Assembly: GCA_022560555.1 (NCBI GenBank)
Contig: JADFSZ010000120.1
Span: forward strand, 1 to 5,642
Direction of reading: 5' to 3'
Source of the DNA: JADFSZ01 sp022560555 [NCBI: PVC group bacterium]
GTDB taxonomy: Bacteria > GCA-001730085 > JADFSZ01
Length of the DNA: 5,642 bases
Part shown: positions 136 to 851 of the stretch, one piece after another
Numbering within the stretch: position 1 is the stretch's first letter
Layout of the letters: the number at the start of each line of letters is the position of its first letter
The notes under the pieces: generated by a model
Databases searched by the model: none
What the model was told of the DNA's origin: nothing
Seen by the model: the letters and a program-made list of their open reading frames with translations, nothing else
Program-made: the position numbers and the translations under genes

Positions 136-321
136 GTGGCAAAGAAATGTAAAGTTGAGAGCGCGAAAAGAGAACCGAGATTTAAGGTTCGTCAACATAA
201 CCGATGTCATTTGTGTGGTAGGCCCAAGGCGTTTATCCGTCGATTCAATATGTGCCGGATTTGCTTTCGGAATTTGGCCAGTCGCGGAGAGTTGCCGGGT
301 GTCCTGAAATCCAGCTGGTAG
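136..321 (+). CDS. rpsN: Ribosomal protein uS14, zinc-binding type Z
   Basis: This gene encodes the 61-residue form of small-subunit protein uS14, which sits in the 30S head next to 16S rRNA. Four cysteines at residues 24, 27, 40 and 43 form the C-x2-C-x12-C-x2-C zinc ribbon that defines the short, zinc-dependent type. The zinc-free type found in E. coli is about 100 residues and lacks them. The ending [12 protein letters not shown] is the family signature, and the basic N-terminus ([19 protein letters not shown]) is also typical. It starts with GTG behind a strong AAGGAGG, 15 bases after rplE. Its TAG stop (319-321) is the first three bases of the heptamer repeat array, so the array abuts the coding sequence directly. 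An extra cysteine at residue 5 is probably not a zinc ligand. Confidence 0.97.
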
Positions 322-418
322 AAGACAGAAAACAGAAGACAGAAAAGCAGAAGACAGAAAACAGAAGACAGAAAAACAGAAAACAGAAGGCAGAAGACAG
401 AAGATAGAAAACAGAGAA
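319..418 (+). repeat. Heptanucleotide tandem repeat array, consensus CAGAARA
   Basis: Fourteen consecutive units follow the consensus CAGAARA (R is A or G). Twelve are 7 bases long and two (340-347 and 369-376) carry one extra base. Unit starts are 319, 326, 333, 340, 348, 355, 362, 369, 377, 384, 391, 398, 405 and 412. The first unit reads TAGAAGA, so it includes the rpsN stop codon; the unit at 405 also begins with T, and the last (CAGAGAA) is degenerate. A 27-base stretch at 320-346 recurs exactly at 349-375. Between 321 and 418 the sense strand has a single T, so the RNA would be nearly U-free and should stay single-stranded within the tract. It fills most of the rpsN-rpsH gap. Similar short tandem repeats occur between genes in some environmental bacterial genomes; here its function is unknown. 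Confidence 0.93.
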
Positions 419-430
419 ATCTGATCTCTG
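412..430 (+). promoter_or_regulatory. Small hairpin before the rpsH ribosome binding site
   Basis: CAGAGA (412-417) and TCTCTG (425-430) are a perfect 6-base inverted repeat with a 7-base loop. The left arm is the last, degenerate unit of the heptamer array. The segment TCTCT (425-429) could instead pair with AGAGG (439-443) of the rpsH Shine-Dalgarno site, with one G-U pair and a 9-base loop. The two pairings exclude each other, so a translational switch is possible. No U-run follows, so it is not a Rho-independent terminator. The stems are short and may be chance. Confidence 0.35.
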
Positions 431-438
431 AAGACATG

Positions 439-452: not shown

Positions 453-851
453 ATGACAATGACCGATCCCATAGCAGCCATGTTAACAAAAATGCGAAAT
501 GCCATTGGGGCTAAGAACGAAAAAGTTCAAATACCATGCTCGAAAATCAAGGTCGCTATTGCAAAAATTCTTAAAGACGAAGGCTTCATTCGAGCTTACA
601 AGATTCTTGAGGCAGATATACAAGCCTCCATTGATATTACCTTGAAATACACAGAAGAGGGGGAACCTGTGATGTCTATGCTGCGGCGTGTGAGTAAACC
701 CGGCTTAAGGCGGTATAGTCCTTCGAAAGAAATTAAATCCGTTATACGAGGGCGGGGAATCTCGATCATGTCAACATCTAAAGGTATTATGACCGGAGAA
801 AACGCCCGTAAAGAGAATGTAGGCGGTGAAGTTTTGTGCGAAATTTGGTAA
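453..851 (+). CDS. rpsH: Ribosomal protein uS8 (S8)
   Basis: This encodes the 132-residue small-subunit protein uS8, a primary binder of the central domain of 16S rRNA. In E. coli S8 is also the translational repressor of the spc operon. The N-terminus MTMTDPIAAMLTKMRNA matches the conserved family start, and the C-terminal half has RVSKPGLRRY (residues 79-88), the signature STSKGIMTGENA (107-118) and the ending GGEVLCEIW (124-132). Length is normal. The start at 453 is chosen for its AGAGGA site; ATG 459 is a possible alternative. The gene follows rpsN after an unusually long 131-base gap filled with the heptamer array, and rplF follows 19 bases after its stop. S8 autoregulation here is conceivable, but no S8-binding RNA element was recognised. 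Confidence 0.98.
   Translation: MTMTDPIAAMLTKMRNAIGAKNEKVQIPCSKIKVAIAKILKDEGFIRAYKILEADIQASIDITLKYTEEGEPVMSMLRRVSKPGLRRYSPSKEIKSVIRGRGISIMSTSKGIMTGENARKENVGGEVLCEIW

What the first reader, a model, noticed from the sequence alone, without database searches (positions are those of the whole stretch)
319..418. Heptamer tandem array inserted in the core spc operon between rpsN and rpsH
Fourteen near-perfect CAGAARA units sit inside a co-transcribed ribosomal protein operon, where gaps are normally short. The other gaps here are at most 46 bases; this one is 131. Period 7 is not a multiple of 3, so it is not a coding repeat. The RNA is nearly U-free, so it should be an unfolded, A/G-rich spacer. 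It could be a slippage-prone tract that tunes rpsH expression by length, a protein or S1 landing site, an RNA processing site, or neutral expansion.
Basis: partly seen in the sequence, partly recalled or inferred. Interest (0 to 1): 0.6.

Follow-up and report, generated by a model that had tools for sequence, protein, structure and literature searches.

The report
Intergenic seven-base repeat array
A stretch of fourteen near-identical seven-base units sits between two ribosomal protein genes of an uncultured bacterium; it is one of many such arrays in this genome and in unrelated bacteria, most likely tolerated repeat DNA and not a switch built for this gene.

Summary
The array is real: 14 CAGAARA-like units at 319-418, 10 exact, starting on the rpsN stop codon and followed by two inverse units (TCTGNNN) and a Shine-Dalgarno-like site before rpsH. 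It is not special to rpsH. The genome carries CAGANNN at several other sites and two more heptamer families. In 55 stretches not chosen for arrays, noncoding arrays number 11 at lag 7 and at most 4 at any tested lag that is not a multiple of 7. Among spc-operon gaps of other lineages, 15 of 205 hold a lag-7 array; 0.15 expected from shuffles. 28 of 56 arrays have an inverted partner nearby, against 7 to 11 in controls. CAGAANA x3 occurs in 10 of 290 genomes, the own one included; 7 of 19 sites inspected lie in frame inside genes that look conserved. Best reading: a member of the published kind 'intergenic heptanucleotide repeat arrays', grown by slippage or unequal exchange and tolerated as an unstructured spacer. 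Gene-specific regulation was neither shown nor excluded. Recurrence of the same words across lineages, with inverted arms and in-frame copies, is the under-described part; how they spread is unknown.

The parts
136..321 (+). rpsN (uS14) with its TAG stop codon; the stop codon is the first three bases of repeat unit 1
   Evidence: ORF; homologous stretches in relatives by tblastn; gene name from the known order and my reading
319..418 (+). heptamer array, 14 units of CAGAARA (10 exact), two single-base insertions, higher-order 29-base repeat
420..433 (+). two units of the inverse word TCTGNNN (TCTGATC TCTGAAG), a short inverted arm; CAGAGA 412-417 is the reverse complement of TCTCTG 425-430
   Evidence: TCTGNNNTCTG is found in 2 of 12399 tiles of 34 bases of the own genome
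438..444 (+). GAGAGGA, Shine-Dalgarno-like site 8 bases before the rpsH ATG
   Evidence: read from the sequence; inference, not tested against the 16S rRNA
453..851 (+). rpsH (uS8), the gene downstream of the array
   Evidence: ORF; homologues by tblastn and protein search

Best explanation
The tract is one member of a genome-wide set of heptanucleotide tandem arrays that lie mostly between genes. Shown: such arrays are over-represented at period 7 in noncoding DNA of this genome and of relatives, often carry an inverted arm of the same word, often start close behind the upstream stop codon, and occur in spc-operon gaps of other lineages with different words. Inferred: a short CAGANNN seed arose in, or was copied into, a normal short rpsN-rpsH gap (about 19 bases remain if array and inverse arm are taken away). 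It then grew by replication slippage or unequal exchange, as the 14- and 29-base higher-order repeats suggest. It is kept because it adds no stable structure in front of the rpsH ribosome-binding site. Its effect on rpsH is probably small: a longer untranslated spacer that may loosen translational coupling to rpsN. How the same words come to recur at many sites and in several lineages is not explained by slippage alone and is left open.
For: Own genome, 55 stretches not chosen for arrays (422 kb): 11 noncoding lag-7 arrays against at most 4 (lag 17) at any lag from 5 to 19 that is not a multiple of 7; with the five chosen contigs added 19 against at most 5. CAGANNN x3: 25 pattern hits, 0 in the reversed control; AGTTNNN x3: 17, control 1; GTAANNN x3: 47, control 13, but that control is not independent. 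Relatives, 80 loci: 37 noncoding lag-7 arrays against at most 5. Spc gaps of 25-400 nt: 15 of 205, in 11 loci, hold one; 0.15 expected by shuffling. rpsN-rpsH gap: 5 of 69 loci (L055, L061, L074, L075, L094); L037, the best SecY match, falls just under the threshold of 11 at 10.5. Higher-order repeats: 29-mer here, 42-mer at C55. RNA fold z = -0.14. Published arrays of the same kind: MacGregor 2015, Rehm 2015, the Geobacter metallireducens genome paper.
Against: Local slippage alone does not predict that one word (CAGAANA) recurs in 10 of 290 genomes, nor the inverted partners (28 of 56 arrays score >=12 against 7, 8 and 11 in three controls), nor seven aligned 102-104-base copies with heptamer arms in G272. 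Arrays are not confined to noncoding DNA: 8 of 27 lag-7 arrays and 5 of 16 fall in ORF calls, some of them spurious. GTAANNN arrays lean to the sense strand: of 15 sites tested 11 sense, 0 antisense between genes, 3 antisense inside ORF calls, 1 mixed, which hints at some constraint. A stricter count on 35 unchosen contigs gave only 2 at lag 7, as many as at lag 17. No expression, variation or population data were available.
Confidence: 0.68

Rival explanations
1. The array is one arm of a dispersed, possibly mobile palindromic heptamer element (MITE-like or RPE-like) that inserts between genes and, in frame, inside genes, and then varies in unit number.
For: Inverted partners enriched. Own CAGA sites at C67 and C145 and this window have inverse arms. 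G272 has seven aligned 102-104-base copies whose terminal arms are GTAAATN heptamers. CAGAANA arrays lie in frame in gatA, waaA, ileS and miaB, with extra residues against solved homologues (miaB is the weak case). Genomes with both words: 3 (G000, G114, G251), about 0.4 expected (my arithmetic); without the own genome 2, of one family, about 0.3 expected.
Against: In the own genome 29 sites, arrays masked, gave 5 pairs below E 0.01: two are the same or an overlapping place, two are matches of 21 and 24 bases, and one (C45:183 and C110:4469) is a real shared flank of about 160 bases at 75%. Y1 transposase (PF01797) is as frequent with these words as without, 9 of 12 and 9 of 12. No RVT_1 reverse transcriptase in the own genome.
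Confidence: 0.25
2. The array is a cis-regulatory RNA element of rpsH: a protein or S1/Hfq landing site, or a length-tuned translation spacer.
For: A/G-rich, weakly folded leader between rpsN and rpsH. MacGregor 2015 proposed translational roles for TAACTGA repeats, some inside ribosomal protein operons. Sense lean of GTAANNN arrays.
Against: The same word stands at other places of this genome. Relatives have other words or no array in this gap; the same-phylum genome G001 has a 20-base gap. AGTT (4 sense, 8 antisense) and CAGA (2 and 2, plus 2 unclear) show no sense lean.
Confidence: 0.15
3. Assembly artefact.
For: Draft genome of 222 contigs; the window is one whole short contig.
Against: The flanks keep a normal spc operon order, the units differ among themselves, and similar arrays stand in other contigs and other genomes. 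The unit number may still be wrong.
Confidence: 0.03

Closest known systems
TAACTGA heptamer direct repeats of Beggiatoaceae, Cyanobacteria and Bacteroidetes (MacGregor 2015, PMC4679880)
   Same: Heptanucleotide tandem arrays, mostly intergenic, many per genome, some inside ribosomal protein operons, scattered over distant lineages
   Different: Other word; in the main genome of that paper most sit within several bases upstream of a start codon, while this array starts on the upstream stop codon and leaves a Shine-Dalgarno-like site before the start
GGGAATC / GGGGAYT arrays of Xanthomonas and Nostoc (Rehm 2015, PMC4692102)
   Same: Intergenic heptamer arrays of varying copy number, some as inverted pairs (passages)
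   Different: G-rich and putatively quadruplex-forming; CAGAARA has no G runs
Tandem heptanucleotide sites of Geobacter metallireducens (class 3, five repeats of MTYCTGA; PMC2700814)
   Same: Period 7, several units, sites of these classes mostly in pairs, a word near TCTGNNN (passages)
   Different: Presented there as predicted regulator binding sites; no link to ribosomal operons in the passages seen
Rickettsia palindromic elements (recalled; a MITE review, PMC10969869, seen in the search listing only)
   Same: Small palindromic repeats between genes and in frame inside genes (recalled)
   Different: Not heptamer arrays (recalled); the in-frame case here concerns other genomes, not the window

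Membership tests
Intergenic heptanucleotide repeat arrays (long SSRs of period 7) | Tandem period of seven beyond chance | tested here: met
   TRF; 0 of 5000 shuffles
Intergenic heptanucleotide repeat arrays (long SSRs of period 7) | Many arrays per genome, mainly noncoding | tested here: met
   11 noncoding and 5 in ORF calls at lag 7 in 422 kb of unchosen stretches; ORF calls are crude and noncoding DNA is about 8% of the sample
Intergenic heptanucleotide repeat arrays (long SSRs of period 7) | Unit number varies between strains | not testable with these tools
   the only other genome held of the phylum is G001
MITE / palindromic mobile element | Inverted terminal arms | tested here: met
   short and uneven in the window: 14 units against 2 inverse units
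MITE / palindromic mobile element | Dispersed copies sharing interior sequence | tested here: not met
   own genome, arrays masked: the CAGA site of this window matched no other of 29 sites; met in G272 for another word
MITE / palindromic mobile element | Target-site duplication or empty site in a close relative | not testable with these tools
   no close relative held
Telomerase-like / DRT10 repeat DNA | Encoded reverse transcriptase | tested here: not met
   no PF00078 match in the 91.5% complete genome; the DRT10 repeat described is 9 nt (passages)

The most novel reading that the evidence does not exclude
CAGANNN, GTAANNN and related heptamer arrays form a cross-phylum class of palindromic, dispersing repeat elements that settle behind stop codons and, in frame, inside essential genes (three heptamers read as the peptide QKTEDRR), spread by an unidentified mechanism. 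The rpsN-rpsH array is a long, expanded copy of one arm.
Probability: 0.3. Interest if true: 0.72.

Novelty: new member of a known kind. Interest (0 to 1): 0.48.

Why it matters
It shows that a core ribosomal operon can hold a long heptamer array, and that period 7 is the preferred period of noncoding arrays in the loci examined here, a bias noted in print, for which polymerase slippage was proposed. If the same words really spread between phyla and into reading frames, there is a small, widespread class of repeat DNA with an unknown copying mechanism that also adds short peptides to essential enzymes.

Tried and rejected
Core-plus-variable grammar: I suspected four fixed and three free contiguous positions per unit. 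Permuting columns did not support it (83 arrays, 414 of 5000 permutations as clumped), so I dropped it.

Telomerase-like reverse transcription: no RVT_1 match in the own genome, so I rejected it for this genome; a divergent RT or the missing 8% is not excluded. Y1/RAYT transposase: 9 of 12 genomes with these words and 9 of 12 without have PF01797; the 12 without were picked by low handle number, not at random, and may hold other heptamer words.

Phage carriage: the exact word pattern gave 17 stretches in a scan of viral contigs (2.9 million contigs by the tool's description). I did not read them and took this as no support for phages as carriers.

General purine or strand bias: sense purine >0.55 in 15 of 20 own arrays and 19 of 34 in relatives. 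By word only GTAA leans to sense, with 3 antisense sites inside ORF calls against it; 17 of its 47 hits had no locus and were not tested. I make no general claim.

Control caveat: the tool's reversed-pattern control is not independent for GTAAATN, GTAANNN and CAGAANA, because the reversed pattern also matches such arrays. I rely on it only for CAGANNN and AGTTNNN.

Gene calls in my scripts were long ORFs only, so some arrays counted as 'coding' are spurious, the window's own among them.

Full report
Observation. The array is present as described. Fourteen heptamers fill 319-418, ten of them exact CAGAARA, with two single-base insertions that create a 29-base higher-order repeat. Lag-7 identity is 0.74; none of 5000 dinucleotide shuffles reached it. 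The first unit is TAGAAGA, whose TAG is the rpsN stop codon. After the array come TCTGATC TCTGAAG (420-433), two units of the reverse-complement word. TCTGNNNTCTG occurs in only 2 of 12399 tiles of 34 bases of the own genome, so this arm is unlikely to be chance. A Shine-Dalgarno-like GAGAGGA (438-444) and the rpsH ATG (453) follow. The other gaps from rpsN to map are at most 46 bases. RNA folding of 300-475 is no better than shuffles (z = -0.14).

Origin of the window. It is one whole contig of 5642 bases in a draft genome of 1.66 Mb in 222 contigs, 91.5% complete. A phylum-wide search found two genomes held, the own one included. The best SecY matches are Omnitrophota MAGs at 65% identity or less (records very near the own genome may be left out there), so I had no close relative to compare. 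The other genome of its phylum, G001, has a 20-base rpsN-rpsH gap.

Genome-wide context. The own genome holds other CAGANNN or CAGAARA-like sites at C55, C67, C145, C209 and C50, and two more heptamer families, GTAANNN (47 pattern hits) and AGTTNNN (17). In 55 stretches not chosen for arrays (422 kb), noncoding arrays number 11 at lag 7 and at most 4, at lag 17, among lags not multiples of 7; at a stricter threshold 7 against 4. With the five chosen contigs added the figures are 19 and 5. An earlier, stricter count on 35 unchosen contigs gave 2 at lag 7 and 2 at lag 14, as many as at lag 17; a count by repeated 4-mer cores on the same contigs gave 5 at spacing 7 and 3 at spacing 6. The excess in the own genome is therefore moderate and depends on the threshold; it is much clearer in the relatives.

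Relatives. In 80 loci around SecY, of many phyla by their record titles, noncoding arrays number 37 at lag 7 and at most 5 at lags that are not multiples of 7. Of 205 spc-operon gaps of 25-400 nt, 15 hold a lag-7 array (gaps with N were skipped in this count); 0.15 were expected by dinucleotide shuffling, and other lags not multiples of 7 gave 0 to 3. The 15 come from 11 loci, four of them from L094 and two from L074, so they are not 15 independent events. The gap called rpsE-rplO holds another gene in many relatives (inference from its median of 194). In the rpsN-rpsH gap 5 of 69 loci have an array: L061 and L074 share similar words, the other three differ. L037, the best SecY match, has an ACGCAAN run just below threshold (10.5 against 11). 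In the 15 gaps the arrays start a median of 6 nt behind the upstream stop and end a median of 21 nt before the next start, with outliers of up to 178 and 248. That is expected if arrays grow in short gaps and spare the ribosome-binding site.

Inverted arms. For 56 noncoding arrays with enough flank, the reverse complement finds a better match within 200 bases than three composition controls: 28 score at least 12, against 7, 8 and 11 (paired Wilcoxon p from 5e-7 to 7e-5). Two arms of one element count twice here. The window's own array was not in this test, because a spurious antisense ORF covers it; its two-unit inverse arm was found separately.

Same words elsewhere. CAGAANA x3 occurs in 10 of 290 genomes and GTAAATN x3 in 12 of 290, the own genome included in both; three have both (G000, and G114 and G251 of one family), about 0.4 expected by chance (the own genome is not an unbiased draw). 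G271 has 149 GTAAATN hits. In G272 the GTAAATN arms bound a 102-104-base repeat of which seven copies were lined up. In one search I looked at 19 distinct CAGAANA sites of other genomes (two further loci, L028 and L034, did not match the strict pattern there). Seven lie in frame in long ORFs that I read as conserved genes. Four were compared with solved structures: gatA (12 extra residues), ileS (9), waaA (about 12) and miaB (7, a weak case). hisH, carB and a second miaB are named from my reading of the translation only. So the period-7 argument against coding gives the right answer here but is not general.

Mechanism. I favour seeding of a short heptamer run in the gap and growth by slippage or unequal exchange; the 29-base order here and a 42-base order at C55 would be its traces. 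That part is inferred. Slippage alone does not explain recurrent words and inverted arms. A reverse transcriptase and a Y1 transposase were tested and gave no support. With arrays masked, own-genome sites share little: of 29 sites, five pairs below E 0.01, two of them the same or an overlapping place, two of 21 and 24 bases, and one real shared flank of about 160 bases at 75% between C45 and C110. A regulatory role for rpsH is possible but rests on analogy.

Literature. Seen: MacGregor 2015 abstract and sections 3, 16 and 23; passages of Rehm 2015, of the G. metallireducens paper and of the DRT10 preprint. Mrazek 2007, on over-represented heptamers, is known to me here only through passages of the first two. 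Searches for the CAGAAGA DNA word found nothing, and for the QKTEDRR peptide words none of the 8 papers listed of 9 held them; subscription papers are mostly not held, so this is weak evidence of absence.

Verdict. A member of a known but little-explained kind at a surprising address, with a more interesting class behind it.

Noticed in passing
L294/L314, L300, L287, L301/L316, L290, L291/L319, L299/L320: CAGAANA arrays in frame inside ORFs of other genomes (miaB twice, after the same LLGQNVNSY stretch; hisH; carB; gatA; waaA; ileS), encoding QKTEDRR-like peptides; four compared with solved homologues.
   Followed up: partly
L303-L308, L310 (G272): A dispersed 102-104-base palindromic repeat whose terminal arms are GTAAATN heptamers, seven copies lined up.
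   Followed up: partly
G271 (L311, L312): 149 GTAAATN x3 hits in a 2.4 Mb genome, one array running from the first base of a contig.
   Followed up: no
L122:4420-4481, L125:7543-7597, L128:16260-16307, L131:4193-4251, L141:3184-3226: A second class of intergenic arrays in the own genome with period 16-17, AT-rich.
   Followed up: no
L094: A Desulfatirhabdium MAG with heptamer arrays of several words in four of its spc-operon gaps.
   Followed up: no
L316 (GatA of G114): A second extra segment (about 16 residues, RVKGRGFTRGGVKGMD region) opposite a gap in the solved homologue.
   Followed up: no
G000 C45:183 and C110:4469 (L233, L247): Two GTAANNN sites whose flanks share about 160 bases at 75% identity.
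   Followed up: no
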